The notes beneath the pieces were generated by a model. That model was not told the DNA's origin, did no database searches, and was given only the letters and a program-made list of their open reading frames with translations. Made by a program: the position numbers and the translations under genes. A stretch of 64,000 nucleotides of DNA from Humibacillus sp. DSM 29435 (GTDB taxonomy: Bacteria > Actinomycetota > Actinomycetes > Actinomycetales > Dermatophilaceae): positions 227,628 to 291,627 of the forward strand of contig NZ_MAST01000045.1 in NCBI RefSeq assembly GCF_001758225.1, in the 5' to 3' direction. Below, piece after piece: positions 26,487 to 61,359 of the stretch; positions within the stretch are counted from its first letter, which is position 1, and every line of letters starts with the position of its first letter.

Positions 26487-27299
26487 ATGAAGACCACCGC
26501 AGACGAGGCGCCTGCCGGCGCCGGAGTCGGCGCCGCTGAGCCCGTGCTCGATGACCATGAGCTGGCCAGAGAGCTCGCCGACGGGGCCGGGCAGCTGCTG
26601 CTCGACCTGCGCGAGCAGCTGAGCGACCCGGCCGAGCTCAAGCGAGAGGGCGATCGCCGGTCGCACGTGTTTCTGATGGCCGAGCTGGCCCGGCTCCGCC
26701 CGGACGACGCTGTGCTCAGCGAAGAGGGCAAGGACGACGCTGCCCGCCTGAGCGCATCGCGGGTCTGGATCGTCGACCCCGTCGATGGCACCCGTGAGTA
26801 CTCCGAGAAGCCGCGCGAGGACTGGGCCGTGCACGTCGCACTGTGGCAGGACGGCGAGCTGGTGGCCGGTGCCGTGGCCCGGCCGGCCATGGGATCGACG
26901 CTCTCGACCGCAGCCCCTGCTCCGGTTCCCGCGGCCGACGGCAACGACATCCGGCTCGCGGTGAGCCGTTCGCGCCCACCCGAGTTCGTGGGCCGCCTCG
27001 CCGAGACCCTCGGCGCTTCGCTGGTTCCGATGGGATCGGCCGGCATCAAGGCGACGGCGGTCCTGGATGGACACGTCGACGCCTACGTGCACGCCGGAGG
27101 ACAATACGAGTGGGACTCGGCCGCGCCCGTCGCGGTCGTGCTCGCCTCCGGACTGCACGCCAGCCGGATCGACGGGTCGCCACTGGTCTACAACCAGGCC
27201 GACCCGCTCCTGCCCGACCTGTTGATCTGCCGACCTGAACTGGCCGAACGACTTCTGGCGACCATTTCCACCCTGACTCATGAGGACGTCAAGCAGTGA
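26487..27299 (+). CDS. cysQ: 3'(2'),5'-bisphosphate nucleotidase CysQ
   Basis: A 270-residue inositol-monophosphatase-family enzyme that hydrolyses 3'-phosphoadenosine 5'-phosphate (PAP) to AMP. The Mg-binding motifs are SEEGKDD, WIVDPVDGTREY (about residues 92-103) and the late YEWDSAAPVAV. The ATG at 26487 is preferred to the TTG three bases before it. It overlaps cysD by four bases, so PAP removal is co-expressed with sulfate activation. PAP is the product of PAPS-dependent sulfotransferases, five of which are encoded 15-29 kb downstream. Confidence 0.93.
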   Translation: MKTTADEAPAGAGVGAAEPVLDDHELARELADGAGQLLLDLREQLSDPAELKREGDRRSHVFLMAELARLRPDDAVLSEEGKDDAARLSASRVWIVDPVDGTREYSEKPREDWAVHVALWQDGELVAGAVARPAMGSTLSTAAPAPVPAADGNDIRLAVSRSRPPEFVGRLAETLGASLVPMGSAGIKATAVLDGHVDAYVHAGGQYEWDSAAPVAVVLASGLHASRIDGSPLVYNQADPLLPDLLICRPELAERLLATISTLTHEDVKQ

Positions 27300-28210
27300 A
27301 CTCTCCAGCGCACGACTACCAGCTGAGCCAGCTCGACCTGCTCGAGGCCGAGGCCATCTTCATCATGCGAGAGGTGGTCGCAGAGTTCGAGCGGCCGGTG
27401 CTGCTGTTCTCCGGTGGCAAGGACTCCATCGTCATGCTGAAGCTGGCCGAGAAGGCCTTCTACCCGGCCCGAATCCCGTTCGCCGTGATGCACGTCGACA
27501 CCGGCCACAACTTCGACGAGGTGCTGGCCCTACGTGACGAGCGGGTCGCCGAGCTGAAGGTTCAGCTCATCGTCGCCAGCGTGCAGGAGGCGATCGACTC
27601 GGGCCAGGTCGTCGAACCGCCCGACGGCACCCGAAACCGCATCCAGACGCCCGTGCTGCTCGACGCGCTCGAGAAGCACCGCTTCACCGCGATCTTCGGT
27701 GGAGCCCGCCGCGACGAGGACAAGGCCCGCGCCAAGGAGCGGATCTTCTCCTTCCGCGACGAGTTCGGCCAGTGGGACCCGAAGAACCAGCGCCCCGAGC
27801 TCTGGAACCTCTACAACGGGCGCATCCACACGGGCGAGAGCATCCGCGTCTTCCCGCTGTCGAACTGGACCGAGCTCGACATCTGGCACTACATCAAGCG
27901 TGAGGAGATCGAGCTTCCGTCGATCTACTACGCCCACGAGCGTGAGGTCTTCGACCGCGACGGCATGCTCTTCGCCGTCCACGAGAAGAAGCAGCCCAAG
28001 CCCGGCGAAGAGGTGTTCACCGAGATGGTGCGCTACCGCACCGTCGGTGACGCCAGCCTCACGGCCGCCGTGCGATCCGAGGCCGACACCGTCGACCTCG
28101 TCATCGACGAGGTGGCCTCCACCCGAGTGACCGAGCGCGGCGCGACCCGCGGAGACGACAAGTTCAGCGAAGCGGCCATGGAAGACCGCAAGCGTGAGGG
28201 GTACTTCTAA
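27296..28210 (+). CDS. cysD: Sulfate adenylyltransferase subunit 2
   Basis: A 304-residue ATP sulfurylase small subunit that forms APS from sulfate and ATP. The PP-loop SGGKDSIVMLKLAEKAF lies at about residues 40-56. The ARRDEDKARAKERIFSFRDE block and the LSNWTELDIWHYI motif are typical. The GTG start overlaps the cysQ stop (GTGA), and cysN follows immediately. APS feeds either cysteine synthesis or PAPS for sulfation. Confidence 0.97.
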   Translation: MNSPAHDYQLSQLDLLEAEAIFIMREVVAEFERPVLLFSGGKDSIVMLKLAEKAFYPARIPFAVMHVDTGHNFDEVLALRDERVAELKVQLIVASVQEAIDSGQVVEPPDGTRNRIQTPVLLDALEKHRFTAIFGGARRDEDKARAKERIFSFRDEFGQWDPKNQRPELWNLYNGRIHTGESIRVFPLSNWTELDIWHYIKREEIELPSIYYAHEREVFDRDGMLFAVHEKKQPKPGEEVFTEMVRYRTVGDASLTAAVRSEADTVDLVIDEVASTRVTERGATRGDDKFSEAAMEDRKREGYF

Positions 28211-28211
28211 A

Positions 28212-29986: not shown

Positions 29987-31756
29987 TCAGCCGTGCAGGG
30001 CCTGCAGCTGCCGGCGGCGAGTGCCGACGGCAACGAATCCGCCACCGAGCAGCACCAGGATGCCGCCGGTGATGGTGATGGCAGGCAGGGCCGAAGAGCC
30101 GGTCATGGCCAGAGCGGAGGACCCCAGGGTCTCATCGAGCTTCACGGCGAGGGGCCGGGAGAGCTTGGCTCGTACCCCGATGCTCTTTCCGGTGGCGTCT
30201 ACCGTCGCCCGCGCGACGGAGACCGTCATGAGCTTGCCGCTGGCGAAGTCCTGCCTCGTGACGACGTAGGGCTTGTCACCCGAACACGTCATGCTCTGCC
30301 CCGGCGCAACCGCCGTGCTGGGGCACACCACGCGGATGGACTGCTTGGTCAGCAGGCTGTCGGTGACAGACAGGTGGCTCAGCTGCAGCTTGCCCGTGTT
30401 GCTCACCACGAACTGGAAGGTGACCTTGTCACCCACATCGGTCACACCGTTCATGGCGTACTCATCGGACACGTGAGTGATGCGCGAGACCAGCGAGATG
30501 CCAGGCTTCGGAGCCGGAACCCGCGGAGCCTTGGGTGGCCGGTCGACCTTGACGGGTTTGGAGGGCGTGACCCGCACCCGGTTGGCGATCGGGGAGATCA
30601 CCAGGGTGGACACCGCCTTCGCGGTGGTCCGGCCGTCCTTGGACCGAGCTGAGACGACGGCAGTGTTCACGACCTTGCCCATCACCGCCTGAGCAGACTT
30701 GACCCGGTAGCCCGGCGACCAGCACCTGATCGACTGCCCGGGGGTGTTGGCCTTCAGCGAGCCGGAGTGACAGGTGATGGTGAGCCCCCTGTCACGCAGC
30801 AGACGGCTGGTGATGGCCGGCGAGGTGAGGGTCACGTTGCCCGAGTTGGACAGGTCGTACACGAAGCCGACCGTGTCGCCGACCGAGACCCGCCTGTTCC
30901 CGTCGGCATCCAGCGTGAGGTTGTAGGTCTGCTTCACTCGGATGCCGGGAACCGCCTTGATGTCCTTGGCGGCCTTGAGCCAGGCGGTGGTCGACTGGGC
31001 GGTCCCGATCGTGCCGGTGGCTCTCGCCGTGACGGCGACGGCGCCCCCGTCGACGTCACTCTGTCCTACGGAACGCACGGTCGTGCACGACACCGAGGCG
31101 CCCGGAGCGATCGTGCTGGCCGCGCACGTCGACGTGCCGGTGCCACTGCTGAGAGCAAGAGCGGACGCCTTGGTCTCGGCGCGGTTGGTGACGGTCCAGA
31201 CCACCCGGAAGCTCTCACCAGCGTCGGTGCGCCGGTTGCCGTTCGCGTCCACGAAGACCGAGCTCTTCACGGTGAGAACCAGACCCGCACCAGTGGCGGC
31301 CTTCGGCGGCGTGGTCGGCTTGGGAGTCGTCGGCGTGGTGGTCGGCTTGGGAGTCGTCGGCGTGGTCGTCGGCTTGGTCGTCGGCTTGGTCGTCGGCTTG
31401 GGAGCAGTCGTGGTCGGCGGCGTGCTGGCGGGGGTGGTAACGGGCGGTGTCGTGACGGGTGGTGTCGTGACGGGCGGTGTCGTGACCGGCGCCTCCGCCG
31501 GGGGCGTCTCCGGTGCAGCGGGCGCCTCCGCCGGGGCCGTCTCCGGTGCCGCCGACTCGACCGGGTCAGCGGCGGTCGGGGACGACGAGCTGGTGTCCGC
31601 CGACACCGACGGGGTGTCGTCGGCGTAGGCCGTTGTCACCGAGGCCAGCGGCACGAGAGCCAGCGCGACCGCAGCAGCGCGCGCCCCGGCTCGAGTCGCC
31701 AACCCCCTCCGATGACCGTCGTTCCGGGTCCCCACAACGGTTCTGCTCGTGCGCAT
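29987..31756 (-). CDS. Cell-wall-anchored surface protein with LAxTG sorting signal
   Basis: 589 residues from ATG 31756, which has GGGG five bases upstream. A signal peptide ends around residue 45 (cleavage near AYA). A Ser/Pro/Thr region follows with TTPPV repeats and KPTTKPTT-type repeats (about 60-150), typical of wall-spanning stalks. Three or four beta-sandwich domains of about 110-130 residues come next. They resemble DUF11-like repeats, with recurring DxNxRxDxGExFR-type motifs. The end has LAMTG, a hydrophobic helix and RRRQ: a sorting signal of the LAxTG type used by class E sortases. No sortase is seen in the window. A role in adhesion or as a surface scaffold is inference. Confidence 0.85.
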   Translation of the reverse strand: MRTSRTVVGTRNDGHRRGLATRAGARAAAVALALVPLASVTTAYADDTPSVSADTSSSSPTAADPVESAAPETAPAEAPAAPETPPAEAPVTTPPVTTPPVTTPPVTTPASTPPTTTAPKPTTKPTTKPTTTPTTPKPTTTPTTPKPTTPPKAATGAGLVLTVKSSVFVDANGNRRTDAGESFRVVWTVTNRAETKASALALSSGTGTSTCAASTIAPGASVSCTTVRSVGQSDVDGGAVAVTARATGTIGTAQSTTAWLKAAKDIKAVPGIRVKQTYNLTLDADGNRRVSVGDTVGFVYDLSNSGNVTLTSPAITSRLLRDRGLTITCHSGSLKANTPGQSIRCWSPGYRVKSAQAVMGKVVNTAVVSARSKDGRTTAKAVSTLVISPIANRVRVTPSKPVKVDRPPKAPRVPAPKPGISLVSRITHVSDEYAMNGVTDVGDKVTFQFVVSNTGKLQLSHLSVTDSLLTKQSIRVVCPSTAVAPGQSMTCSGDKPYVVTRQDFASGKLMTVSVARATVDATGKSIGVRAKLSRPLAVKLDETLGSSALAMTGSSALPAITITGGILVLLGGGFVAVGTRRRQLQALHG

Positions 31757-31760
31757 TCGT

Positions 31761-31775
31761 ATCCCCAAAGTGACT
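31761..31775 (-). promoter_or_regulatory. 15-mer shared by two secreted-protein genes (copy 1)
   Basis: On the minus strand the bases just before the surface-protein start read agtcactttggggat. The identical 15-mer precedes the 849-residue secreted-protein gene at 53269-53283, again three or four bases from ATG. It includes the GGGG ribosome-binding site. Confidence 0.6.
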
Positions 31776-32022
31776 AGTCGGTGCGTCGCCGTTCGGGCGT
31801 TGCACCTGAGCGCGGCGCGAACGCCGAAAGAAATTTTCCCCAGCCGAAACATACCCCGGCGCAGACGTCGATACCCTCGATTTCGCCACCTTGGCGTGGC
31901 CAAGATCGTCCCGATCTGTCGACCTCAGCCGGTCGCCGACCCTTCGAGTCGGTCCCAGCATATGGACGCTCAAAGCGCAGGTGATTGTGCGTTTCGTTAC
32001 CTAACCGATACTGTCGCCGCCC

Positions 32023-32994
32023 ATGACTCCCCTAACAAGACGCGGTGTGCTGCGCGGCGGTACGGCCTTGGGCACTCTTGCCCTTGCGTCGGCCGTGCCG
32101 GTCACCGCTTTCGCCCGTCCATCCAAGGCCACCCCGCAGGCCGCCCAGCAGGCCGCCGGTAGCCGCTTCGCCGGCGACCCGGGTTCCGGCAAGCTTTACT
32201 ACGGCGCGTCCGTGGTTGCCAGCTACGGTCTGTCCACCCTCGAGTCGCAGCTCAAGCACAAGGTCGGCGTTCACCGAGGGTACTTCGTGCCCAAGAGCCA
32301 GAAGGGTCTGCTCCAGCAGGTCAAGGACGACCACGCCAACGGTCGTCTTCCCTCGGTCTCGACGAAGGTCCCCGACACGTGGGGCAACATGGCGGCCGGC
32401 AAGCAGGACGCCTGGCTGCGGGTTCTGCTCACCGCGCTGGCGCAGGCCAAGAAGCCGGTCTTCCTGACCTTGCACCACGAGCCCGAGAACGACACCGGTG
32501 GCAATGGTATGAAGCCGCAGGACTGGCGCTCGATGTACGACCACGCCGTGGTGCTGGCCGCATCCGTGGCGCCGAACGTGACGATGGTGCCGATCCTCAT
32601 GCAGTTCACGTTCGACCCCGGCTCAGGGCGCAAGCCCGCCGACTGGGTGCCCACCACGACCAAGGTGTTCAGCACCGACTGCTACAACGCCTGGTCGCAG
32701 TCCAACGGCCTCAAGTGGCGGTCCCTGGGCGACAAGATGTCGATGACGTTGCCCTACGCCAACGGCCGGCCCATCGTGTTGGGCGAGTACGGATGCCGCA
32801 CCGACCCGAAGAACCCGGGACTGGCCGCTGCCTGGATGCGGGACGCCTTCGACTGGTGCCGCACCCACAACGTGGTGTCGATGTCGTACTTCAACTCCTA
32901 CCAGCACAGCCGTTTCGGAAGCTGGGAGCTGGACACCGAACGGCTGAACGCCATGAGGACGCTCATCACCAGTCCCTACTCGGTCAGTCTCTGA
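32023..32994 (+). CDS. Tat-exported GH26-like glycoside hydrolase
   Basis: A 323-residue exported enzyme with a twin-arginine signal (TRRGVLRGG, residues 5-13, then a hydrophobic stretch and TAFA cleavage near 31). The fold is a TIM barrel of the GH26-like type. The likely acid/base is E153 in LTLHHEPEND and the likely nucleophile E255 in IVLGEYGC. GH26 enzymes cut beta-mannans or related glycans. The position at the edge of a polysaccharide locus suggests it trims or releases the local polymer. It has a distant counterpart at 47389-48546. The ATG lies shortly after a CGTTACC-type promoter element. A strong terminator follows. Confidence 0.82.
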   Translation: MTPLTRRGVLRGGTALGTLALASAVPVTAFARPSKATPQAAQQAAGSRFAGDPGSGKLYYGASVVASYGLSTLESQLKHKVGVHRGYFVPKSQKGLLQQVKDDHANGRLPSVSTKVPDTWGNMAAGKQDAWLRVLLTALAQAKKPVFLTLHHEPENDTGGNGMKPQDWRSMYDHAVVLAASVAPNVTMVPILMQFTFDPGSGRKPADWVPTTTKVFSTDCYNAWSQSNGLKWRSLGDKMSMTLPYANGRPIVLGEYGCRTDPKNPGLAAAWMRDAFDWCRTHNVVSMSYFNSYQHSRFGSWELDTERLNAMRTLITSPYSVSL

Positions 32995-33223: not shown

Positions 33224-34606
33224 ATGGTTGCAACACCGAGGGCGGGGCTGCAGCTGAGGGAGATGCTGACAGACCGCGAGACGGCGTCCCTGGAGGCTCC
33301 GTCACGACGCCGGTTGTTGCCCGTCGGCTGGCCCCTGGTCGCGCTGTTCACCTTCTACCCCCTCTGGTGGGTTCTGGGAGTCGCTCCGTTCGTGTCGATC
33401 GGGGTCGCAATTCCGCTGGCCATCGAGCTGCGGTCCAGAGGAAAGCTGAGGGCTCCTCGCGGCTTCGGCCTCTGGCTGCTCTTTCTCGTCTGGCTGCTGG
33501 TCGGCGTGCTGGTGCTTCAGGTAGCCGCTCCCGAGGCCATTCCCACCACGAGCATGGCCAGATACTTCACGTTTGCCTTCCGTTACCTGTGGTTTCTCGC
33601 GGCAACCGTCGTGCTTCTCTATGTCGGCAACATGCGCGAGGAGCTGAGCCTGCTGTGGTTCTGCAGAGTCATCGGCTCAATGTTCATCGTCATCGTTGCT
33701 GGGGGACTGCTCGGCTGGGCCGCCCCGAAGTTCGAGTTCAACTCTGTTTTGGAGATTGTGCTGGGAAGCAAAGGCAAGTCGCCTTTCCTCCAGAACCTCA
33801 TTCACCCAACGGCCGCCCAGATCCAGGACTTTCTCGGCTATGAGCAAGGCCGACCGAGCGCACCCTTCGCCTTCACCAACTCCTGGGGCGTCAACTGCGC
33901 TGTCACCCTGCCGTTCTTCGTCGTCGGCTGGTTTCACCGCGCCAGCCAGGCGCGACGGGTCGTTGGCGTCGGCGTACTCGTTCTGGCCATCATCCCGATC
34001 ATCTCGTCCCTCAACCGCGGGCTATGGCTCGCGCTGACCCTCTGCGGTCTCCTGCTGGTCGTGCGCATGGCGCTGCAGGGCCGGCCGCTGGTGCTCGTGG
34101 GCGCTCTGGTGGCTGCCGCGCTGGCAGCGTCGATCATTGTCGCGTCGCCGCTCGGGGATCTGATCGCGGTACGCCTCGACAACGGAAACAGCAACACCGG
34201 CCGCACCAACCTGGGCACCCAGACGCTCGAGAGCACGTGGCAGGGTTCACCGGTGGTGGGCTTCGGCACGACCCGCGACCCAGCGGGTAACTGGGTCTCC
34301 ATCGCTGCGGGAGCAACCGCCGACTGCCCTCGCTGCACGCCACCGCCGTTGGGAACGCAGGGCCAGTTCTGGCTGGTGCTCTTCGCGTCCGGTTTCGGTG
34401 GGGCGATCGCCTACCTCGGGTTCTTTCTCTACCAGCTGTTCAGACACTTCTGGATGAGGTCGATCTATGCCACGGCCGGGCTGAGTGCCGTGGCCATGCA
34501 CCTGATCACCTCGCCCTTCTACAACACGGTCGACACCTCACTGCTCGTCATCCTCGCGGCGGTCGGACTCATGTGGCGAGCCCGGGTGGAGGCTGAGTCG
34601 CTGTGA
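33224..34606 (+). CDS. Wzy/O-antigen ligase-like polysaccharide polymerase membrane protein
   Basis: A 460-residue protein with about ten transmembrane segments and one large extracytoplasmic loop before the last ones (about residues 320-380). The pattern fits Wzy polymerases and O-antigen ligases, whose sequences are poorly conserved. Loop residues include RTNLGTQTLESTWQGSP and GFGTTRDP. The ATG is the first in-frame start after two stops, yet its ribosome-binding site is distant. A much better site (ggaggaggtacc before GTG 33166) opens another frame. It overlaps the next gene by four bases, forming a three-gene operon with the chain-length protein and the deacetylase. Confidence 0.75.
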   Translation: MVATPRAGLQLREMLTDRETASLEAPSRRRLLPVGWPLVALFTFYPLWWVLGVAPFVSIGVAIPLAIELRSRGKLRAPRGFGLWLLFLVWLLVGVLVLQVAAPEAIPTTSMARYFTFAFRYLWFLAATVVLLYVGNMREELSLLWFCRVIGSMFIVIVAGGLLGWAAPKFEFNSVLEIVLGSKGKSPFLQNLIHPTAAQIQDFLGYEQGRPSAPFAFTNSWGVNCAVTLPFFVVGWFHRASQARRVVGVGVLVLAIIPIISSLNRGLWLALTLCGLLLVVRMALQGRPLVLVGALVAAALAASIIVASPLGDLIAVRLDNGNSNTGRTNLGTQTLESTWQGSPVVGFGTTRDPAGNWVSIAAGATADCPRCTPPPLGTQGQFWLVLFASGFGGAIAYLGFFLYQLFRHFWMRSIYATAGLSAVAMHLITSPFYNTVDTSLLVILAAVGLMWRARVEAESL

Positions 34607-35760
34607 AGTCCCCAGTCAGTGCGGATGTGCCACTGAACGGCTACGTCCAGATCGTCAAGAGACACTGGGTGGCGCTGGTCCTACTCGTGCTGGCGTGTTC
34701 GTTGGTGGGTGTCGGTCTGCAAGCGCGGCAAGGCACCCCGGTGGAGGCCCATCAGCGGGTGTTCGTGCGAGACATCCGCAACGGTGATACCGACGCGGGC
34801 GGCGAGCTGGCGACGATCGACTTCTCCCTCGACACGGAGGCCCAGCTGATCAGGTCGGATGGAGTCATCAAAGCCATCCAGGCCGCGGCCGGAACTCCGA
34901 TGACAACGGCGGAGGCTCTTTCCCGGCTGCGGGTCACAGCGCTGCCGAACACCCGCATCCTGGTGCTGCACGTCACGCTTCCCGACGAGGCCAGGGCTAC
35001 CTTGGCTGCGCAGAAGGCGAGCGAGGCCTACCTGTTGGCACGCTATGACCTGCTCAGCGCGTCGAAAACGGCCCAGCTGGCGCTGCTGCAACAGCGCTAC
35101 GCCGACATCTCCAAGATCGTCTCGACCATGAACAAGACCGTTCCGGCAGACCGCAGCCTGCGCATCGACGTGACTAAGAGCGCGCTGAGCAAGTACAACA
35201 ACGACCTGCGATACGTCGTTACGACGCGCAACAGACTCGCGAACAACTCTCTTGACGTCGGCCAGCTCGTGGGTGAGACGAGCGCCCAACCCAACTACGA
35301 CGGATGGGTCATCAAGGGAGCCTCCGGCGTTGCGATCGGGTTGGCCATCTGGTTCTTCCTGGCGGTCCTGTTCGACGGAGCCTTCCGGCGGGTCAGCCCG
35401 CGCCGTCGAAAGTGGTCGCGCTCGCGTGAGGCCGTGCCGATCATCAGCCGGGTGAAGGTCGGCTCTGCCGACCGCGACGGCAGCACCATCGACCCCCAGG
35501 ATCCCGCCTTGGCAGAAGCGGTGGCCTCGCTGCGCGCCTTCTCGCCGATCAGCGCTGTTCTGGCGCCGCTGGGAGACGCGCACTCACTGCAGGTGGCAGC
35601 CGCATTGGACGGCTTGAGCTGGGACCCCGATCCGGGCACGTCAGGCCGTGTGGTGCTCGTCGCCCCTTCCGATACCCGCGTCGCGGACGTCCTGGCCTTC
35701 GAGCGTCGCTCGACCGCCGCAGAGCTCGAGACCGTGGGACTGATCGTGGTGGGGTCGTGA
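34603..35760 (+). CDS. Wzz-like polysaccharide chain-length/co-polymerase protein
   Basis: 385 residues, GTG start overlapping the polymerase stop. TM1 lies at about residues 22-40 and TM2 at about 236-256, with an extracytoplasmic helical domain between them. This is the Wzz/PCP topology that sets polymer length. The cytoplasmic C-terminal part (about 260-385) looks like the end of a Rossmann-type domain, but there is no Walker A motif and no tyrosine cluster, so kinase activity is unlikely. A second, larger relative lies at 37946-39469. Co-translation with the Wzy-like gene supports the role. Confidence 0.78.
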   Translation: MKSPVSADVPLNGYVQIVKRHWVALVLLVLACSLVGVGLQARQGTPVEAHQRVFVRDIRNGDTDAGGELATIDFSLDTEAQLIRSDGVIKAIQAAAGTPMTTAEALSRLRVTALPNTRILVLHVTLPDEARATLAAQKASEAYLLARYDLLSASKTAQLALLQQRYADISKIVSTMNKTVPADRSLRIDVTKSALSKYNNDLRYVVTTRNRLANNSLDVGQLVGETSAQPNYDGWVIKGASGVAIGLAIWFFLAVLFDGAFRRVSPRRRKWSRSREAVPIISRVKVGSADRDGSTIDPQDPALAEAVASLRAFSPISAVLAPLGDAHSLQVAAALDGLSWDPDPGTSGRVVLVAPSDTRVADVLAFERRSTAAELETVGLIVVGS

Positions 35761-36581: not shown

Positions 36582-37163
36582 CGGCCGTTCGTGCGAGTCG
36601 TGACTGCGGGACCCGCGCTTCCTTGAGGTGAACCAGGCCAACGGACCAGACCGAGAAGGCAGGTTCGCCACCACAGCGGCAAACCGAGCGACGGACTCTT
36701 CGACGCCGGCCTCGGCATCGACCGGGTCGAAGCGGAGTACAGATGGGTCCGCGATGGCAGCGTCGAGGGCCGCGTGCAAAGCGCGCTCATCCTCGGCCAG
36801 CCAGATGTCGCCACGATCGGCGAGTCGACGGCAGAGGTCGACCTGGTGGTCGTCGACCACTTCACCGAAGGCCTTGAGACGTGGCACGACGATGGGCTTC
36901 AAGCCCATGCGCCGGGTCTCGACGATGCCCATCGGGCCGCCTTGCGTGACGACCACGTCCGCGCTCTCCATGAGCCGCATCAGGGTGGGGTGGGGCAGGT
37001 ACGCCATGGCCTCGCCGTGCAGGGGGGCCCGTGCCGTACCGTGCTGCACGCTGAGCTCGATGTCGTTCAGGTGAGTCGCGGCCCAGCTGTCGGTCCAGCC
37101 GATGAGACGGTCGAAGGGATGATGATCTGATCCCACCGTCTCAACGATGGTCAGCCGGCTCAC
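36570..37163 (-). CDS. Alg13/PssE-like glycosyltransferase subunit (catalytic part)
   Basis: 197 residues from a GTG that overlaps the stop of the upstream Alg14-like gene. It corresponds to the C-terminal half of a GT28 (MurG-like) enzyme: VTQGGPMGIVETRRMGLKPI is the nucleotide-sugar-binding region, and PRLKAFGEVVDDHQ follows. In Alg13/Alg14 and PssE/PssD pairs this chain binds the UDP-sugar, and the partner anchors it at the membrane and binds the lipid acceptor. It should add the second sugar of the lipid-linked repeat unit. The last 25 residues are basic. Confidence 0.85.
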   Translation of the reverse strand: MSRLTIVETVGSDHHPFDRLIGWTDSWAATHLNDIELSVQHGTARAPLHGEAMAYLPHPTLMRLMESADVVVTQGGPMGIVETRRMGLKPIVVPRLKAFGEVVDDHQVDLCRRLADRGDIWLAEDERALHAALDAAIADPSVLRFDPVDAEAGVEESVARFAAVVANLPSRSGPLAWFTSRKRGSRSHDSHERPSPQ

Positions 37164-52879: not shown

Positions 52880-53286
52880 CTTCGACTCCATCGTTGTGGT
52901 GCTGACATAGACGTTGAGAGGATTGAACCCATCTCTCCCAGAAGATGTACCTGTTCGGCGAATCTGGTGGCTTCTGAGGGGGTTTCGTCTCACTCTGTCG
53001 AGGACACGCGGGTGCGTTGCCCCATTTGCGCGGAGAGCTCGTCGACACTCGACCTTCGTTCGAGGGTTTGGCCACCACGGGCGACGGGGTGGGGAATCGC
53101 ACAGTCTCGAGTCAGAGGTCTTCGTCGCGGGCCCGCTTCGGCGCATCTCTCGAGAAGCGCAGCCAGAAGGAGACTCTCCGATGTCGCGAAAATTGCGATT
53201 CCACTACGGCCACAGCACACAACGGATAACTTGACGCTGTCAGCCACCCGGCGGACAGCAGGCTGCACAGTCACTTTGGGGATTCA
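52880..53286. promoter_or_regulatory. Divergent promoter region between two secreted-protein paralogs
   Basis: 407 bases with no credible gene. A TTGACG at about 53231 could be a -35 for the plus-strand gene. The 15-mer agtcactttggggat at 53269-53283 ends three bases before its ATG and also occurs before the LAxTG surface-protein gene. Confidence 0.5.
53269..53283 (+). promoter_or_regulatory. 15-mer shared by two secreted-protein genes (copy 2)
   Basis: agtcactttggggat, identical to the bases upstream of the gene starting at 31756 on the minus strand. It covers the ribosome-binding site GGGG and eight or more bases before it. Confidence 0.6.
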
Positions 53287-55836
53287 ATGGCGATCAATTC
53301 AGTTACACGGGGGAGCCGGCGCAGGGCCGTGGCCGGTGCGACGGCCGTCGCGGCGACGCTGGCAGTGGGGCTCGGGGCGCCCTCCTTGGACACCGCTCAA
53401 GCCGCGGCTGGGCGAAACGACGTTCCTTCTGCCGTTCCTGCGGCGTTCACGCCCGGAGTCAACAACGGCCAGGTTCGCGCGATAGCCCAGGTCGGGTCGA
53501 CGATGGTGGTGGGTGGAACCTTCTCGTCGGTCTCCGCCTCCGGCAGCACTGCTGTCATCAACCGCACCCGGGTCTTCGCGTTTGACGCCGGTACGGGTGC
53601 CATCTCGTCGTTCGCACCGAACGTCAACGGCAACGTCGAGACCGTTGCCGCCGGCCCAACTGCAGGAACTGTCTACATCGGAGGCAGCTTCACCTCCGTC
53701 AACGGGGTCAAGGCACCACGCATCGCGCTCCTCAGCCTGTCGAACGGGCAGGCTGTCACGACCTTCAAGCCGGGTGCCGGCTTCAACGGCATCGTGCAGC
53801 GCATCCGAACGTCGGGCGGCCGTCTCTTCGTCGGTGGTTCGTTCACCAAGTACCAGAGCTTCAAGCACGTCGGGCTCGCGACGCTCGACCCGGCCACGGG
53901 TAACAACGACCCCTACATGAACCTCAACATGGCGGGCCGGCACAACGACACAGGCAGCGGCCGCGTCGAGAAGACCGGTGCGCTCGACTTCGACATCAGT
54001 GGCGACGGAAGCCAGATGGCGGTCATCGGCAACTTCCGCACGGTCGGAACCGAGGCGCGCACGCAGCTGGCGCTCGTCAGCCTTGGCGCCACGTCGGCCA
54101 CCGTGCGAACCGACTTCAAGACCAACGACTACGAACCCCTCTGCTACAACAGTGCTTTCGACACCACCGTGCGCAAGGTGATGTTCGCGCCGAGTGGGTC
54201 GTGGTTCGTCGTGACCGCGACGGGTGGCGGCAACAGCTCGCTCTGCGATGCTGCTTCGCGCTTCGAGACGAACGCCTCAGGTCAGGACCTGCACCCGACC
54301 TGGATCTCACACGCGGGCGGCGACACGCTCTACGGCCTGGCCGTCACCGACGAGGCCGTCTTCCTCGGCGGGCACCAGCGTTGGATGAACAACCAGCTGG
54401 GCAACGACTCACCCGGACCGGGCGCCGTCCCGCGTCCGGGCCTGGCCGCCGTCGCTGCTGACACCGGCCTGCCGCTGTCGTGGAACCCGGGCCGCAACCC
54501 ACGAGGAGCCGGGGCCTACAGCCTGCTGGCCACCGACGCCGGCATCTGGGTCGGTAGCGACACCCCCTGGATCGGCAACCACAAGTACAAGCGTCCGCGC
54601 ATCGCGTTCTTCCCCTACACGGGGGGCTACAACCTGCCGTCAACCGCGGAACCGAGCCTCACCGGTCTACGGGTCGGCGGTCAGGTCAGCCCTGGGTCTT
54701 CGCCGGTTCTCTACCGGGTGGATGCCGGTGGCGCGACCGTTGCTGCGAATGATGGTGGGCCCGACTGGGCGGCGGACCAGTCCGACCCCAGCCCGGTGCG
54801 CAACAGCGGCAGCAACTCAGCAGGTTACGCACCCGTGCCGAACGTCGACTCGACGGTTCCGGCCAGCACCCCGTCGGCGATCTTCGACAGCGAGCGCTGG
54901 GATCCGTCGGGCGGCGATGAGATGGCGTGGAGCTTCCCCGTCGCAGCGGGTCACTCCGTGAAGGTGCGGCTCTACTTCGCGAACCGGTGCACCTGCACCA
55001 GCGCTGAAGACAGCCGACAGTTCAACGTCGCCATCGACGGCAACCCGGTGCTCAGCAACTTCGACATCGTCAAGAGCGCCACCGACCAGACGGGCACCAT
55101 GAGGGAGTTCACCGTCACCAGTGACGGTGCCGTCGACATCGGCTTCGGTCACATCACCGAGAACCCTCTGGTCAACGGCATCGAGATCATCGACCCGAGC
55201 GTGCCCACCGTGGCTGCGACGGTCACCGACGCTGTCACCCAGACTGCCTACGACGGCAGCACGGTCGGCGCCACGACCACTGTCAACGGTGGAGGGATCG
55301 ACTGGAGCAACACCCGGGGCGCCTTCGTCATCGGGGGATCACTGTTCTACGCCAAGGCCAACGGGCTGCTCTACCGTCGTACCGTGAGCGGCACCACCTA
55401 CGGTCCTGAGGTGGTTCTCAACCCGTACCACGACCCACTGTGGATGAACATCAGCAACGGCTCGGGCGGCACGTACAACGGCACCGACCCGAACCTCGCG
55501 GCCCAGCTGCCGTCTCTGACCGGCCTGTTCTTCGACAACTCCCGTATCTACTACTCGACGTCCGGGGACCCACGGTTGCACTACCGTTCGTTCAACGCCG
55601 ACAGCGGGATCGTCTACCCCATCGAGAGCTTCGCGCCGACGTCACTCGACTTCTCGACCGTGACCTCGATGACGCTGAACGGCGGCAGGCTCTACTATGT
55701 GCGTACCGACGGCCAGCTCTGGTCGGTCGCGTTCAGCAACGGTGCCGTCTCCGGCACGCCGAGCCTGGTGGACAACCCAGCCGTGAGTGGCCACAGCTGG
55801 ACCGGTCGCTCGCTGTTCGCGGCGCCGAACCAGTAA
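53287..55836 (+). CDS. Large secreted protein: beta-propeller repeats and malectin-like domain (short paralog)
   Basis: 849 residues. A signal peptide lies at about residues 1-42 (basic start, hydrophobic core, cleavage near AQA). Residues about 45-460 hold propeller-type repeats such as MVVGGTFSSVS, VYIGGSFTSVNG and LFVGGSFTKY. The conserved block HQRWMNN...GAVPRPGL...LSWNPGRNPRG follows. About 474-634 is a malectin-like domain, and 650-849 a second strand-rich part. It ends there: the PKD and beta-sandwich module of its two paralogs is absent. It is divergent from the 1136-residue paralog and precedes sulfotransferase 5. There is no membrane or wall anchor, so it is probably released or glycan-bound. 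Confidence 0.85.
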   Translation: MAINSVTRGSRRRAVAGATAVAATLAVGLGAPSLDTAQAAAGRNDVPSAVPAAFTPGVNNGQVRAIAQVGSTMVVGGTFSSVSASGSTAVINRTRVFAFDAGTGAISSFAPNVNGNVETVAAGPTAGTVYIGGSFTSVNGVKAPRIALLSLSNGQAVTTFKPGAGFNGIVQRIRTSGGRLFVGGSFTKYQSFKHVGLATLDPATGNNDPYMNLNMAGRHNDTGSGRVEKTGALDFDISGDGSQMAVIGNFRTVGTEARTQLALVSLGATSATVRTDFKTNDYEPLCYNSAFDTTVRKVMFAPSGSWFVVTATGGGNSSLCDAASRFETNASGQDLHPTWISHAGGDTLYGLAVTDEAVFLGGHQRWMNNQLGNDSPGPGAVPRPGLAAVAADTGLPLSWNPGRNPRGAGAYSLLATDAGIWVGSDTPWIGNHKYKRPRIAFFPYTGGYNLPSTAEPSLTGLRVGGQVSPGSSPVLYRVDAGGATVAANDGGPDWAADQSDPSPVRNSGSNSAGYAPVPNVDSTVPASTPSAIFDSERWDPSGGDEMAWSFPVAAGHSVKVRLYFANRCTCTSAEDSRQFNVAIDGNPVLSNFDIVKSATDQTGTMREFTVTSDGAVDIGFGHITENPLVNGIEIIDPSVPTVAATVTDAVTQTAYDGSTVGATTTVNGGGIDWSNTRGAFVIGGSLFYAKANGLLYRRTVSGTTYGPEVVLNPYHDPLWMNISNGSGGTYNGTDPNLAAQLPSLTGLFFDNSRIYYSTSGDPRLHYRSFNADSGIVYPIESFAPTSLDFSTVTSMTLNGGRLYYVRTDGQLWSVAFSNGAVSGTPSLVDNPAVSGHSWTGRSLFAAPNQ

Positions 55837-56985: not shown

Positions 56986-59900
56986 ATGGGGGAACTCGCC
57001 CGCGCTCTGCGCGCGATGCTGGTCGGCACTGTGGCGGTTGCGGGGGTGACGACTGCGGCAGCAGCGACCGCCGCCCCTGCGGCGGCAGTCTCGCAGGTGT
57101 CTGTCGTCGATGCCTCACCATCCAAGCTCACCCCGGATGTCGACGATGGCATCGTCGAGACGATTGCGAAGGTGGGCAACCGGGTCTACCTCGGCGGTAC
57201 CTTCACGACGGTGCGTGACCCGGGTTCGAGCACCCCGCTGGCGCGTACGAACATCCTGGCCTTCGACGCCACGACGGGCGCCGTCGACCAGAGCTTCGTC
57301 CCGCAGATCAACGGCGAGGTCGGCCAGATCATCGCCGGCCCCGCCAACTCGGTCTACGTCGTGGGGTCCTTCACCCAGGTCAACGGGGTCAAGACCCGGA
57401 TCGTGCGCCTTGACGGCGCGACCGGGGCGATCTCCGCGGGGTGGAAGGCCTCGGTCAACAACATCACCGCCACTGCAGCACTTGGTGATGGCGTGCTCTA
57501 CGTAGGGGGCTCCTTCAGCAAGTCAGGCGGCAACTCCCACGCTGAGATGGCCGCTCTGGATCCTCTGACCGGCAAGGACCTCAGCTGGTTCAAGGTCGAC
57601 TTCGCCGGTCGCCACGGTACGGGCAGGGCCAAGGCGGAACTGTCTCCCAAGAAGATCGTGGTGAGCCCCAACGGTAGCCAGATGGTGGTCATCGGAAACT
57701 TCACCTCGGTCACCGACGCGAACGGGACCACTGACCGAGACCAGGTCGCCCTGATCGACCTGGGTCCGGGCACGGCCTCGATCAACCGAAGCTGGCGTTC
57801 GGTTCAGTTCACCGGCCAATGCTCCACGAACGCCTTCGACTCCTGGGTTCGCGACGTCGACATCGACCCGACCGGCACCTACTTCGTCGTGGCGGCGACG
57901 GGCGGACAGTGGACGAACAACGTTGACGGCACGAAGGCCCTTTGTGACTCGGCGTCTCGCTGGGAGCTGAACGCCACCGGCACAAGCGTTCTGCCCACGT
58001 GGGTCGCGCTGACCGGTCGCGACACCCTCCTGTCTGTCGCGGTGTCCGGAGCCGCCGTGTACGTCGGCGGGCACGAGCGCTGGATGAACAACCCCCTGGG
58101 TAGCGACAACGCGAAGGAAGGGGCCGTGCCGCGACCGGGTCTGGCCGCTCTCGACCCGTCGACGGGTGTGCCACTGTCCTGGAACCCTGGCCGTAACCCC
58201 CGCGGGGTCGGGACCTTCGCGATTCTGGTCACCGACACCGGCCTCTATACCGGCAGCGACACCGACTACATCGGGAACTACCGCTACCACCGCGGTCGAG
58301 TGGCCTTCTTCCCCATCGCCACCGGGTCGGCGATCCCGTCTGACACGACAGGCACCATTCCCGGTAAGATCCTGGCCGCCGGCGGGTTGGACGCATCGGC
58401 TCGCTACGACGTTCTGTACCGGGTCAATGCGGCCGGGCCGGCCGTGGTGAGCACCGACGGTGGCCCGAGCTGGGTCGCTGACAACTCGGAGCCGTCGTCC
58501 TACCGCAACAGCGGAAGCACGGTTGCCACCTATTCCGGCACGGCCTCCCTGGACAGCACGATCCCGGCGGGCACGCCCACCACGCTCTTCAACACGGAAC
58601 GCTACGACCCCGGCGTCAAGAACGACGGGGGCGAGATGAAGTGGGCGTTCCCGGTCGCCTCGGGGACCACTGTGAACGTCCGTCTCTACTTTGCGAACCG
58701 GGCCAGCAGCACCACCGGAGTTGGGTCGCGTAAGTTCGACGTCGCCGTCGAGGGCTCTGGGGTGCTGTCCAGCTTCGACATCATCGCGGCCACGGGCAAC
58801 AACCGCGGAACCATGCGTCAGTTCAGTGCGGTCAGCGACGGCACGATCAACATCGACTTCACCCACGGCACCAACAACCCCCTGGTGAACGCGATCGAGA
58901 TCGTTCAGACGAGTCCGACGCCTGCCGGGCCACCCGATCCCCACGCGCTGCGCGCCTCGACCGTTGCGAGCTCGAGCTCGTTCGGTTCTCTCGCCACGAC
59001 AGACACCGCAACCATGGACTGGGCCACAACGCGTGGTGCTTTCCTCGTCGGGTCGACGCTCTTCTACGGCAAGACGGACGGGACCTTCAACAAGCGCAGC
59101 TATGACGGCGGTTCGTTCGGTCCTGAGGTCGGGGTCGACCCCTACAACGATGCGTTGTGGAGCCCGGTCGACAGCGGTTCGGGTGCCACGCAGACCTACC
59201 GGGGTGTGGTGCCGAACCTCTACGGCCAGTTCGTCAACGTCTCGTCGATGTTCTACGCCAACCACCGCATCTACTACACGCTCACGGGCGCCTCGACGAT
59301 GTACTCCCGGTACTTCGTGCCGGAGTCAGGGATCATGGCGGCCCAGGTGACGGTCGTCGACGGCCGATCGTGGACCGACGTGGCCGGCGCCTTCGTGGTG
59401 GGCGACAGTCTCTACTACGCGAGCCGGTCGAACGGCGCCCTCTACCGCACCGGGTGGGACGGGGCCAAGGCCACCGGCACGGCGGTCCAGGTCGACAAGA
59501 ACAACAACTGGGCGGCTCGATCCCTGTTCTTGGTCTCCGCACCAGACAACTCCGTCCCGACGGCACGCGTGAGTGTCAACTGCCCCGAGACCACCCTTGC
59601 GTGCACGTTCGACGCGACGGCATCCACCGACAGTGACGGGTCGATCGTCAAGTACGACTGGGACTTCGGCGACGGTCAATCCGCACCGGACGGCGGCCCG
59701 ACCGTCAGCCACGACTATGTTTCGGGCGGAGTTCGCCAGGTCACCCTGAGCGTGACCGACAACGCCGGGGCGGTCGGCACCACCACTCAGGCCGCGAACC
59801 CGACCACGACCCCCGCGGTCGTCTCGTTCCAAGGTTCTACGCAGGGCCAGGCGGCCAATGCCTCGAGCATCGATGCCACGATCCCGCCGGAGGCCCACAC

Positions 59901-61359
59901 CGGAGATGGCCTCGTGCTCATCCAGTCGGTCAACAGTGGGTCGGTCACGTCGACGGACCCCGCCGGCTGGACCCTCGTTCGCACCGTGGCCAACGGATCC
60001 GCGCTCGTGACGAAGGTGTACTCCCGAGTGGCGCAGGACGGGGACGCTGGCTCGACGGTCACGATCGCGTTCAGTGCCAGAGCGAAGATCACCGCCGCCG
60101 TGCTGGCCTACCAGGGCACCGACCTGGTGAACCCCGTCGGAGCCTCTGCGGTCTCGGTCGATACGGCTACCTCTGCCCACGTCACACCGACCGTCACCCC
60201 CACAGCGCCAGGCAGCATGGCGTTGAGCCTCTGGCAGGACAAGGCAAACATCTCGGCGTCGGCGTGGAGCACGCCTGCGGAAGTGACGAGCCGGTCCACG
60301 GTGGTCGGCGGAAGCGGTGGAGCCATCACGCAGGTGGTCGCTGACTCCGGAGCGGCCATCCCGACCGGCGTCGCCTACGGCGGGCTGACGGCCACGTCCA
60401 ACGCGACCAGCGTCAAGGGTGCCACCGCGACGTTCGTGCTCACCGCGAACCCGGTGCGGCTCAATATGCGGCCAACAGCATCGATGGAGGCAACCTGCCC
60501 GGAGGAGACTCTCAGCTGCTCCTTCGATGGGTCCGCCTCTGCTGACAGTGACGGCTCCATCGCACGCTACGACTGGGACTTCGGTGACGGATCCACGGCC
60601 GCCGACGCCGGTCCGACCGTGAACCATGTCTACGGGTCGAGCGGCTCGCAGCACGTCGTTCTGACGGTCACCGACAACGAGGGTCTGCGCTCGACCGTGT
60701 CGAAAGACGTCAGCCCCACGGCCATGCCCGCCACGATCGCCTTCCGCGGTAGCTCAGAGCTTCAGGCGAACAACGCCTCCAGCATCACGGTAGCCATACC
60801 TGCGAGCGTGCAGTTGGGCGACGGCCTGCTCCTGGTGCAGTCCGTCAACAACGGTTCGGCGACCTCGACCGACCCCGAGGGCTGGACCCTCGTACAGCAG
60901 ATCAAGAACGGCTCGGCCATGGTGACCAAGGCCTACTGGCGAGTTGCCACGCAGGATGACGCTGGCAGGGACGTCACGATTCCGTTCAGCCTGAGCGGAA
61001 AGATCTCGGCCGCGGTCACCGCCTACTCGGGAACCGACCAGGTCGCGCCGCTCGCGGCGAGCATGGCGCAAGCCACGACCACCACCCACATCACACCCTC
61101 CGTGAACGTGGAGCGCAACGGCAGCTGGGTCGTCAGTCTGTGGCAGGACAAGGCGAGCCTGTCAGCCTCGACGTGGTCAACACCGCCGGAGGTCACGACA
61201 CGTTCGACCCTGGTGGGCGGAGGAGGCGGAGCCATCACCCAGGTTCTGGGAGATTCTGGAGCATTCGTTCCGAAAGGTACGTATAGTGGGCTTACGGCCA
61301 ACACGGACACCGCCAGTTCCAAGGGCATCGCCGCCGTGTTCGTGCTCCAGGCCGGCTGA
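56986..61359 (+). CDS. Very large secreted protein: beta-propeller repeats, malectin-like domain, two PKD plus beta-sandwich modules
   Basis: 1457 residues with a signal peptide to about residue 35 (Ala-rich, cleavage near AAA). Residues about 45-460 are propeller-type repeats (VYLGGTFTTV, VYVVGSFTQVNG, LYVGGSFSKSGG) with the shared HERWMNNPLG and LSWNPGRNPRG block. A malectin-like domain covers about 476-642 and a second strand-rich region about 655-850. Two tandem modules of about 300 residues each (about 856-1159 and 1160-1457) consist of a PKD domain (DGSIVKYDWDFGDG and DGSIARYDWDFGDG) and a beta-sandwich. No anchor is visible. The tandem copy suggests recent internal duplication. It ends just before a strong terminator. 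Confidence 0.87.
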   Translation: MGELARALRAMLVGTVAVAGVTTAAAATAAPAAAVSQVSVVDASPSKLTPDVDDGIVETIAKVGNRVYLGGTFTTVRDPGSSTPLARTNILAFDATTGAVDQSFVPQINGEVGQIIAGPANSVYVVGSFTQVNGVKTRIVRLDGATGAISAGWKASVNNITATAALGDGVLYVGGSFSKSGGNSHAEMAALDPLTGKDLSWFKVDFAGRHGTGRAKAELSPKKIVVSPNGSQMVVIGNFTSVTDANGTTDRDQVALIDLGPGTASINRSWRSVQFTGQCSTNAFDSWVRDVDIDPTGTYFVVAATGGQWTNNVDGTKALCDSASRWELNATGTSVLPTWVALTGRDTLLSVAVSGAAVYVGGHERWMNNPLGSDNAKEGAVPRPGLAALDPSTGVPLSWNPGRNPRGVGTFAILVTDTGLYTGSDTDYIGNYRYHRGRVAFFPIATGSAIPSDTTGTIPGKILAAGGLDASARYDVLYRVNAAGPAVVSTDGGPSWVADNSEPSSYRNSGSTVATYSGTASLDSTIPAGTPTTLFNTERYDPGVKNDGGEMKWAFPVASGTTVNVRLYFANRASSTTGVGSRKFDVAVEGSGVLSSFDIIAATGNNRGTMRQFSAVSDGTINIDFTHGTNNPLVNAIEIVQTSPTPAGPPDPHALRASTVASSSSFGSLATTDTATMDWATTRGAFLVGSTLFYGKTDGTFNKRSYDGGSFGPEVGVDPYNDALWSPVDSGSGATQTYRGVVPNLYGQFVNVSSMFYANHRIYYTLTGASTMYSRYFVPESGIMAAQVTVVDGRSWTDVAGAFVVGDSLYYASRSNGALYRTGWDGAKATGTAVQVDKNNNWAARSLFLVSAPDNSVPTARVSVNCPETTLACTFDATASTDSDGSIVKYDWDFGDGQSAPDGGPTVSHDYVSGGVRQVTLSVTDNAGAVGTTTQAANPTTTPAVVSFQGSTQGQAANASSIDATIPPEAHTGDGLVLIQSVNSGSVTSTDPAGWTLVRTVANGSALVTKVYSRVAQDGDAGSTVTIAFSARAKITAAVLAYQGTDLVNPVGASAVSVDTATSAHVTPTVTPTAPGSMALSLWQDKANISASAWSTPAEVTSRSTVVGGSGGAITQVVADSGAAIPTGVAYGGLTATSNATSVKGATATFVLTANPVRLNMRPTASMEATCPEETLSCSFDGSASADSDGSIARYDWDFGDGSTAADAGPTVNHVYGSSGSQHVVLTVTDNEGLRSTVSKDVSPTAMPATIAFRGSSELQANNASSITVAIPASVQLGDGLLLVQSVNNGSATSTDPEGWTLVQQIKNGSAMVTKAYWRVATQDDAGRDVTIPFSLSGKISAAVTAYSGTDQVAPLAASMAQATTTTHITPSVNVERNGSWVVSLWQDKASLSASTWSTPPEVTTRSTLVGGGGGAITQVLGDSGAFVPKGTYSGLTANTDTASSKGIAAVFVLQAG

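What the first reader, a model, noticed from the sequence alone, without database searches (positions are those of the whole stretch)
26487..61359. Candidate sulfated-exopolysaccharide island linking sulfate activation, Wzy/Wzx assembly, five sulfotransferase domains and secreted glycan-binding proteins
Seen: cysQ-cysD-cysN, then Wzy-, Wzz- (two) and Wzx-like proteins, a deacetylase, an Alg13/14 pair, a kinase-like protein, five sulfotransferase domains, two GH26-like exported enzymes and three malectin-bearing secreted paralogs within 35 kb. Established: sulfotransferases use PAPS and release PAP, which CysQ removes; CysDN makes the APS precursor. Inferred: these genes make, sulfate and display one polymer. 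Sulfated bacterial polysaccharides from actinobacteria are poorly described. Missing pieces: APS kinase and an initiating sugar-phosphate transferase.
Basis: partly seen in the sequence, partly recalled or inferred. Interest (0 to 1): 0.78.

Follow-up and report, generated by a model that had tools for sequence, protein, structure and literature searches.

The report
Actinobacterial sulfated-polysaccharide locus with its missing parts
A soil actinobacterium keeps genes predicted to build a sugar polymer beside genes predicted to make activated sulfate and attach it, and relatives of this gene set recur near one another across many actinobacteria, so this group likely coats its cells with sulfated polysaccharides, something so far only rarely described there.

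Summary
Five sulfotransferase domains, cysQ-cysD-cysN, Wzx/Wzy/Wzz-like proteins, a deacetylase, an Alg13/14-like pair, an APH-fold kinase, two GH26 enzymes and three malectin proteins are present. Every PF13469 or PF00685 match in the genome (E 0.001) lies in this island. The two missing pieces exist: the genome's only APS kinase match and only PF02397 match lie about 6.6 kb apart at the start of contig C51. C51's first 55 bases equal the window's last 55 and occur nowhere else, so C51 most likely continues the window; the island then fills about 43 kb between pth and mfd, genes 149-369 bp apart in two relatives without it. A scan of named genomes baited with Wzy alone gave 80 loci: 76 hold a sulfotransferase, 76 the APH-fold kinase, 65 GH26, 47 an APS kinase. 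Actinoplanes-group loci show the gene order of A. missouriensis wps-1; most wps-1 mutants, and a mutant of the neighbouring SAT/APS kinase gene, have defective sporangia. Those authors proposed but did not measure sulfate. So this is most likely a Wzx/Wzy locus for a sulfated polysaccharide, a variant of a kind already proposed, with wider reach than that paper describes. No chemistry exists for it.

The parts
25553..26167 (+). pth, conserved left border of the island
   Evidence: ORF; pth is followed directly by mfd in relatives G021, G016
26484..27299 (+). cysQ-like PAP phosphatase
   Evidence: PF00459 E 4.5e-32; CysQ best NCBIfam model but below cut-off; 90% identical in sister genome
27296..28210 (+). 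cysD, sulfate adenylyltransferase small subunit
   Evidence: TIGR02039 451 bits over cut-off; only CysD-type PF01507 match in the genome
28194..29468 (+). cysN, sulfate adenylyltransferase large subunit, no CysC domain
   Evidence: TIGR02034 574 bits over cut-off
29987..31903 (-). DUF7507 repeat surface protein with LAMTG-like tail
   Evidence: PF24346; tail
32023..32994 (+). GH26-like enzyme a, Tat-like leader by eye
   Evidence: in GH26 profile A2
33224..34606 (+). Wzy-like polymerase
   Evidence: RfaL model E 1e-4, below cut-off; 8 hydrophobic stretches; bait A1
34603..35760 (+). Wzz-like protein 1
   Evidence: no family match; 2 hydrophobic stretches, no Walker A; homologues beside Wzy
35757..36581 (+). 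polysaccharide deacetylase
   Evidence: PF01522 E 9e-23
36570..37160 (-). Alg13-like glycosyltransferase half (start approximate)
   Evidence: PF04101 E 5e-7 on the longer ORF
37160..37699 (-). Alg14-like glycosyltransferase half
   Evidence: PF08660 E 1e-8
37970..39469 (+). Wzz-like protein 2 with degenerate BY-kinase-like half (start approximate)
   Evidence: PF02706 E 9e-4 and TIGR01007 E 1e-6, both below cut-off; no Walker A
39465..40697 (+). WpsI-like APH/FN3K-fold kinase (start approximate)
   Evidence: AF2 pLDDT 91; Foldseek 3jr1 E 1.8e-7; K157, E171, HGD287, N292, D304 invariant in 28 of 28
40694..42307 (+). Wzx-like flippase
   Evidence: PF01554 E 4e-19
42439..43326 (-). sulfotransferase 1
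   Evidence: PF00685 E 7e-14; PAPS-motif match
43323..44243 (-). sulfotransferase 2 (start approximate)
   Evidence: PF13469 E 5e-13; motif
44231..46192 (-). sulfotransferase 3 fused to GT2 glycosyltransferase (start approximate)
   Evidence: PF13469 E 2e-11 and PF00535 E 7e-19
46422..47324 (-). sulfotransferase 4 (start approximate)
   Evidence: PF13469 E 1e-11; motif
47389..48546 (+). GH26-like enzyme b, lipoprotein-like leader by eye
   Evidence: GH26 profile A2
48566..49345 (-). membrane protein, 4 hydrophobic stretches
   Evidence: 27% relative in G002 island
49469..52894 (-). secreted propeller-malectin-PKD protein 1 (start approximate)
   Evidence: PF11721, PF18911; 61% identical in G002 island
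53287..55836 (+). secreted propeller-malectin protein 2
   Evidence: PF11721
55952..56770 (+). sulfotransferase 5
   Evidence: PF13469 E 2e-24
56986..61359 (+). secreted malectin-PKD protein 3
   Evidence: PF11721, PF18911
61914..63931 (-). IS21 istB-istA, the element at which the contig ends
   Evidence: PF01695, PF22483; 55-base end shared with C51

Best explanation
The island is most likely one sulfated-polysaccharide locus: a repeat unit is predicted to be started on lipid carrier by a PF02397 transferase, extended by a GT2 and an Alg13/14-like glycosyltransferase, likely sulfated in the cytoplasm by five sulfotransferase domains with PAPS predicted to come from CysD, CysN and an APS kinase, and then would be flipped by Wzx and polymerised by Wzy under Wzz control. 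Shown: the genes, their families, the sole APS kinase match and sole PF02397 match on contig C51, and recurrence of the set in relatives. Inferred: that C51 follows the window (shared unique 55-base end), that the sulfotransferases are active and act before export (four of five have no hydrophobic stretch; sulfotransferase 3 is fused to the GT2), that CysQ removes the PAP by-product, that the TauE-like protein on C51 moves sulfate or a sulfur anion, that GH26 enzymes trim the polymer and malectin proteins bind it outside the cell, and that the APH-fold kinase phosphorylates a sugar or lipid intermediate. Within the genus the sulfate-supply borders are nearly constant while polymer genes differ strongly, as in serotype-like capsule loci.
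For: Genome-wide: all PF13469 and PF00685 matches at E 0.001 lie in the island; one APS kinase and one PF02397 match, both on C51. Contig join: 55 bases at C45's end and C51's start, nowhere else at up to 3 mismatches. Sister Humibacillus genome: pth-cysQ-cysD-cysN-Wzy-Wzz-Wzz-kinase-Wzx-ST1-ST2-ST3GT2-GH26 on one contig, ST5-GH26-malectin-ST4-malectin-TauE-CysC on another. G002: initiator, Wzx, Wzy, kinase, three sulfotransferase genes (one fused to GT2), GH26 and malectin within the 22.8 kb between pth and mfd on one contig. Wzy-baited named loci: sulfotransferase 76 of 80, kinase 76, Wzx 71, GH26 65, GT2 60, CysC 47 (reversed-sequence decoys 0 for the 18 profiles tried). Family: kinase carriers with PF13469 24 of 25 against 29 of 161 others; APS kinase in 49 of 53 PF13469 carriers against 34 of 133 others. 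CysH carries APS-reductase-type cysteines, so PAPS is likely made for sulfation. Literature: a gene order like that of wps-1 and its neighbour AMIS_7390, genes needed for normal sporangia (PMC13390465).
Against: No sulfate has been measured. CysD is the genome's only copy, so cysDN may sit here as housekeeping genes. G027 has cysQDN and APS kinase between mfd and mazG with no polymer genes found in 20 kb except a short malectin-protein match. APS kinase occurs in 34 of 133 family genomes without PF13469, and 4 of 53 PF13469 carriers lack it. 29 of 53 PF13469 carriers lack the kinase-like protein. G021 keeps the initiator between mazG and eno with no island, so it may serve another polymer. In the family, 12 genomes have sulfotransferases on mfd's contig but over 180 kb away and 21 on other contigs or unlisted; G002 has no cys genes at the locus and its APS kinase lies about 160 kb off. 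Wzy and Wzz assignments are weak. Four of 80 Wzy loci lack both sulfotransferase and kinase, though each reaches a contig end within 3.5 kb of Wzy. The relatives share ancestry, so the counts are not independent.
Confidence: 0.8

Rival explanations
1. The sulfotransferases modify a lipid, protein or small molecule, and lie among polymer genes without acting on the polymer.
For: Known actinobacterial sulfotransferases recalled from memory act on glycolipids and menaquinone in mycobacteria; five different domains could have different targets.
Against: One is fused to a GT2, as in 5 of 80 Wzy-baited loci; 68 of 76 kinase-like open frames have a sulfotransferase open frame within 300 bp; Wzy bait alone recovers sulfotransferases in 76 of 80 loci.
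Confidence: 0.07
2. Two separate things side by side: housekeeping sulfate assimilation (cysQDN, APS kinase) beside a polymer cluster whose sulfotransferase-fold proteins are weak, inactive or minor.
For: Only CysD of the genome; G027 arrangement; cysQDN 90-97% and polymer genes 24-64% identical between sister genomes, so they evolve at different rates.
Against: CysH looks APS-type, so assimilation likely needs no APS kinase; APS kinase tracks PF13469 (49 of 53 against 34 of 133) and lies within 30 kb of a match in 29 of 49 genomes with both; motifs intact in all five.
Confidence: 0.1
3. The sulfated product is a wall-linked or capsule-like glycan, or a developmental matrix, rather than a released exopolysaccharide.
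For: wps-1 mutants are defective in sporangium formation, which the authors read as a matrix defect (PMC13390465); secreted malectin proteins and a sortase-like-tailed surface protein lie in the island.
Against: No wall ligase was recognised among the scanned proteins; not decidable from sequence. Does not change the sulfation claim.
Confidence: 0.3

Closest known systems
wps-1 cluster of Actinoplanes missouriensis (Tezuka and Ohnishi 2026, PMC13390465; abstract, sections 16-17 and passages read)
   Same: GT2, sulfotransferases, GH26, Wzx, protein-kinase-like WpsI, Wzy, Wzz and an adjacent SAT/APS kinase gene; six Actinoplanes-group loci recovered by our Wzy bait (L064, L077, L094, L095, L097, L098) show this order (L094 checked by Pfam). 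A. missouriensis itself was not among the 80 loci.
   Different: Here five sulfotransferase domains instead of two, cysQDN at the locus and a PF02397 initiator near it, malectin proteins, Alg13/14-like pair and deacetylase; no GT26, methyltransferase or DUF4262 seen in the ORFs scanned; pth-mfd site.
Sulfated capsule clusters of Cobetia marina KMM 1449 and Vibrio sp. KMM 8419 (PMC11766843, PMC11641403; passages read)
   Same: PAPS genes (Cobetia: cysN/cysC, cysD, cysQ and a sulfate permease; Vibrio: second copies of cysC, cysN, cysD) plus sulfotransferases in the polysaccharide cluster; sulfated polymer structures reported from chemical analysis.
   Different: Gram-negative, ABC-transporter (kps) export, cysC fused to cysN in Cobetia.
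Synechan xss cluster of Synechocystis 6803 (PMC8205485; passages read)
   Same: Wzx/Wzy/PCP with two sulfotransferases; sulfate measured in the polymer.
   Different: Plasmid-borne cyanobacterial cluster; the terms PAPS, APS kinase and cysC do not occur in the paper's main text.

Membership tests
Wzx/Wzy-dependent polysaccharide locus | MATE/PST-type flippase | tested here: met
   PF01554 over cut-off
Wzx/Wzy-dependent polysaccharide locus | Wzy polymerase and Wzz co-polymerase | tested here: inconclusive
   matches below curated cut-offs or none; topology and neighbours fit
Wzx/Wzy-dependent polysaccharide locus | initiating sugar-phosphate transferase | tested here: met
   single PF02397 at C51:10638-11204, outside the window between mazG and eno; a relative lies inside the pth-mfd interval in G002
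Sulfated-polysaccharide cluster (PAPS genes plus sulfotransferases) | PAPS synthesis genes at the locus | tested here: met
   cysD, cysN in window; APS kinase on C51, contigs linked by a unique 55-base overlap
Sulfated-polysaccharide cluster (PAPS genes plus sulfotransferases) | sulfotransferase genes at the locus | tested here: met
   five domains over Pfam cut-offs
Sulfated-polysaccharide cluster (PAPS genes plus sulfotransferases) | sulfate ester on the polymer | not testable with these tools
   needs chemistry
wps-1-type cluster of Actinoplanes | APS kinase, Wzz, Wzy, WpsI-like kinase, sulfotransferase, Wzx, GH26, GT2 together | tested here: met
   all present, APS kinase on C51, order rearranged
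wps-1-type cluster of Actinoplanes | GT26, methyltransferase and DUF4262 genes (wpsC, wpsF, wpsD) | tested here: not met
   no such Pfam match among the island ORFs scanned
GH26 | profile similarity to solved GH26 enzymes and two catalytic glutamates | tested here: met
   endoglucanase H (GH26) chains E 1e-41; two Glu invariant 20 of 20
APH/fructosamine-3-kinase fold | fold and catalytic HGD..N / D residues | tested here: met
   TM-score to query at most 0.48 in the rows shown, so a distant member and substrate open

The most novel reading that the evidence does not exclude
Actinomycetota share an old, widely kept sulfated-glycan assembly line, with its own PAPS supply and a dedicated APH-fold kinase, whose polymer genes are swapped like capsule serotypes between constant sulfation borders at the pth-mfd site; it would be the Gram-positive counterpart of sulfated capsules and of animal sulfated glycans, and would explain the unexpected sporangium defect of the Actinoplanes AMIS_7390 mutant as loss of PAPS.
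Probability: 0.45. Interest if true: 0.8.

Novelty: new variant of a known kind. Interest (0 to 1): 0.62.

Why it matters
Sulfated polysaccharides are standard in animals and algae and shown in some cyanobacteria and marine Gram-negatives; for actinomycetes they are proposed but await proof (PMC13390465). A locus with its own PAPS supply, found in many named actinobacterial isolates, gives the organisms and genes to test. It also offers a ready explanation for a published mutant phenotype that its authors called unexpected.

Tried and rejected
Considered: that APS kinase and initiator are absent (rejected); that C51 is unrelated (55-base overlap unique; sister contig with TauE-CysC beside sulfotransferases); that the CysC-bearing 506-residue protein is also an active ATP sulfurylase (its N-half has no Pfam match and none of the recalled motifs QxRN, HxxH, GRD; among 47 relatives QxRN is in 0, HxxH in 18, GRD in 3, some of them cut short); that GH26 was a wrong call because Pfam was silent (profile search says GH26). 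Paper searches; among the listed hits PMC13390465 is the one seen to propose a Wzx/Wzy sulfated polysaccharide in an actinomycete; PMC9911575 (start of abstract seen only) reports sulfate in a Streptomyces exopolysaccharide. Led nowhere: the two papers listed (listing only). Not searched genome-wide: PF03567 and PF17784 sulfotransferases, PF00953 initiators, PF01747 ATP sulfurylase.

Limits of the counts: the match list was cut off by the tool; rows of G018 and G002 missing there were taken, and G086 had no listed row. In one search mfd places of 51 of 53 genomes were pasted (G077 has none, G120 only a piece). In one search, 43 sulfotransferase rows, and only part of the 153 rows, were pasted, so distances are upper bounds and counts lower bounds. 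L026 among the 80 loci is the sister genome that helped to build the bait, so 79 are fresh. The call kept 80 of 181 relatives. Ten of 175 sulfotransferase open frames of the 80 loci, six of them among the weaker ones, were rechecked with Pfam: 9 of 10 matched, 8 over a cut-off; the frame in L036 did not match. On rereading I corrected G002 from four to three sulfotransferase genes: one hit covers the GT2 half only.


Full report
What was checked. The window is the end of contig C45 (227628-291627) of a 5.02-Mb, 54-contig actinobacterial genome. Its sister genome G001, placed in the same genus, is Humibacillus sp. isolate 41_S55: the overlapping letters of its contig and the public record are identical. 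So the window most likely comes from a Humibacillus (Intrasporangiaceae). Seven gene starts in the parts list are approximate.

The island is the genome's sulfation site. All matches at E 0.001 of the two sulfotransferase families searched over the whole genome, PF13469 (5 match rows, 4 genes) and PF00685 (2 rows), fall at window 42.4-56.8 kb. All five domains carry 5'-PSB-like and 3'-PB-like motifs (motif patterns recalled). One is fused to a GT2 glycosyltransferase.

The missing pieces. The genome has one APS kinase match, the C-terminal half of a 506-residue protein at C51:3515-5035 with P-loop GLSGSGKS, and one PF02397 initiator match, in the ORF C51:10617-12164. C45 ends with the window; C51 begins with the same 55 bases, which occur nowhere else in the genome at up to 3 mismatches and point the same way. 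An IS21 element lies at the break. Read on, C51 gives a phosphoesterase, a TauE-like transporter, the APS kinase protein, mfd, mazG, the initiator and eno (mfd, mazG and eno named by reading). In relatives G021 and G016, which have no PF13469 match, pth and mfd are 369 and 149 bp apart. Here about 42.9 kb lie between them if the contigs are laid end to end. The join is an inference, but a strong one.

Conservation. In the sister genome one contig reads pth-cysQ-cysD-cysN-Wzy-Wzz-Wzz-kinase-Wzx-ST1-ST2-ST3GT2-GH26 and another ST5-GH26-malectin-ST4-malectin-TauE-CysC; mfd is on a third. G002, of another genus, holds initiator, three sulfotransferase genes (one fused to GT2), Wzx, Wzy, kinase, GH26 and malectin in the 22.8 kb between pth and mfd on a single contig, without cys genes there. 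G009 has deacetylase-, sulfotransferase-, cysN-, cysD-, APS kinase-, TauE- and initiator-like genes together at another place. Of 186 family genomes, 53 have PF13469 at E 1e-5. Of 51 whose mfd place was compared, 18 have sulfotransferases within 40 kb upstream of mfd, none downstream; 12 have them on that contig but farther than 180 kb; 21 have them on other contigs or unlisted, the window's genome and its sister included. In G012 they lie upstream of pth, not between pth and mfd.

Unbiased baits. Wzy alone (no sulfotransferase in the bait) gave 181 relatives in named genomes, of which the best 80 were kept; all listed titles are actinobacterial. A profile census, with decoys at zero for the 18 profiles tried, found sulfotransferase in 76 of 80, WpsI-like kinase 76, second-type Wzz 76, Wzx 71, GH26 65, GT2 60, APS kinase 47, mfd 41, cysN 31, TauE 29, cysD 23, cysQ 18, initiator 15 and malectin 22. 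Loci are at most about 21 kb, so absences are soft. In 33 of 47 loci with APS kinase its open frame lies within 1.5 kb of mfd. The kinase-like protein as bait in the family: 25 of 186 genomes; 24 have PF13469, against 29 of the 161 others (Fisher p 1.6e-14, relatedness ignored), and all 24 within 20 kb. APS kinase: 49 of 53 PF13469 carriers against 34 of 133 others; within 30 kb of a match in 29 of 49. The reverse is looser: 29 of 53 PF13469 carriers have no kinase-like protein.

PAPS logic. The genome's other PF01507 protein, CysH on C9, has CCxxRK, CxxC and ECGLH cysteines of the APS-reductase type (motif knowledge recalled; sequence) and lies beside a sulfite/nitrite reductase and a tetrapyrrole methylase gene. 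Assimilation then likely needs APS, not PAPS, so the APS kinase is likely there for sulfation. CysD has no second copy, so CysDN likely feeds both routes.

The kinase-like protein. Alignment of 28 homologues keeps Lys157, Glu171, His285-Gly-Asp287, Asn292 and Asp304 invariant. The AlphaFold2 model (pLDDT 91) matches fructosamine-3-kinase and aminoglycoside phosphotransferases (E 1.8e-7 for 3jr1; TM to query at most 0.48 in the rows shown). An active sugar- or lipid-intermediate kinase is predicted; its substrate is unknown. Its likely counterpart WpsI is required for normal sporangia in A. missouriensis (PMC13390465, section 16 read).

GH26. The 20-row profile hits endoglucanase H and other GH26 structures; two glutamates are invariant. 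Trimming or releasing the polymer is the usual role guess; the substrate is unknown.

Cassette pattern. Between the two Humibacillus genomes pth, cysQDN, TauE and mfd are 90-97% identical, the initiator 87%, mazG 84% and the APS kinase protein 76%, whereas Wzy, Wzx, sulfotransferases, GH26b, Wzz and kinase are 24-64%. The sulfate supply is near constant and the polymer genes vary, which suggests different polymers under one sulfation system.

Prior work. Tezuka and Ohnishi 2026 (PMC13390465: abstract, sections 16 and 17 and passages read) described wps-1 in A. missouriensis, predicted a sulfated polysaccharide, and found all genes but wpsD needed for normal sporangium formation (wpsB mutants looked normal but released fewer spores). 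The AMIS_7390 (SAT/APS kinase) mutant was severely and unexpectedly defective; they did not measure sulfate and in the text read did not link AMIS_7390 to PAPS supply. Six Actinoplanes-group loci fetched here show the same order, APS kinase first. Sulfated capsules with PAPS genes and sulfotransferases are reported with structures in Cobetia and Vibrio (passages), and synechan in Synechocystis (passages). Hence a new variant of a known kind, not a new category.

Verdict.

Noticed in passing
window 61914-63931 and contig C51:1-55: IS21 istB-istA at the contig end; the assembly breaks just outside it and hides the second half of the locus.
   Followed up: yes
window 26484-61359 against L017, L018, L019: Sulfate-supply and border genes mostly 84-97% identical (APS kinase protein 76%) but polymer genes 24-64% between two genomes of one genus: serotype-like exchange.
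   Followed up: partly
window 34603-35760 and 37970-39469: Neither Wzz-like protein has a Walker A, though the second matches a BY-kinase model weakly; possible pseudokinase co-polymerases.
   Followed up: partly
window 29987-31903 (-): DUF7507 repeat protein with LAMTG-like sortase tail inside the island; a 34% relative lies in the sister's island contig (L018).
   Followed up: no
L022 (G027:C7:1-20000): cysQ-cysD-cysN and APS kinase between mfd and mazG with no polymer genes found nearby: the sulfate genes can sit here alone.
   Followed up: no
contig C51:3515-5035; 47 relatives in the 80 loci: APS kinase carries a long N-terminal part; PUA and ATP-sulfurylase domains are recognisable in the Actinoplanes relative but only the kinase halves align between the two, and QxRN is absent in 47 of 47: a likely dead sulfurylase half.
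   Followed up: partly
window 20503-22716 (-): A 737-residue ORF in a stretch of lower G+C (0.65) left of the island, not identified.
   Followed up: no
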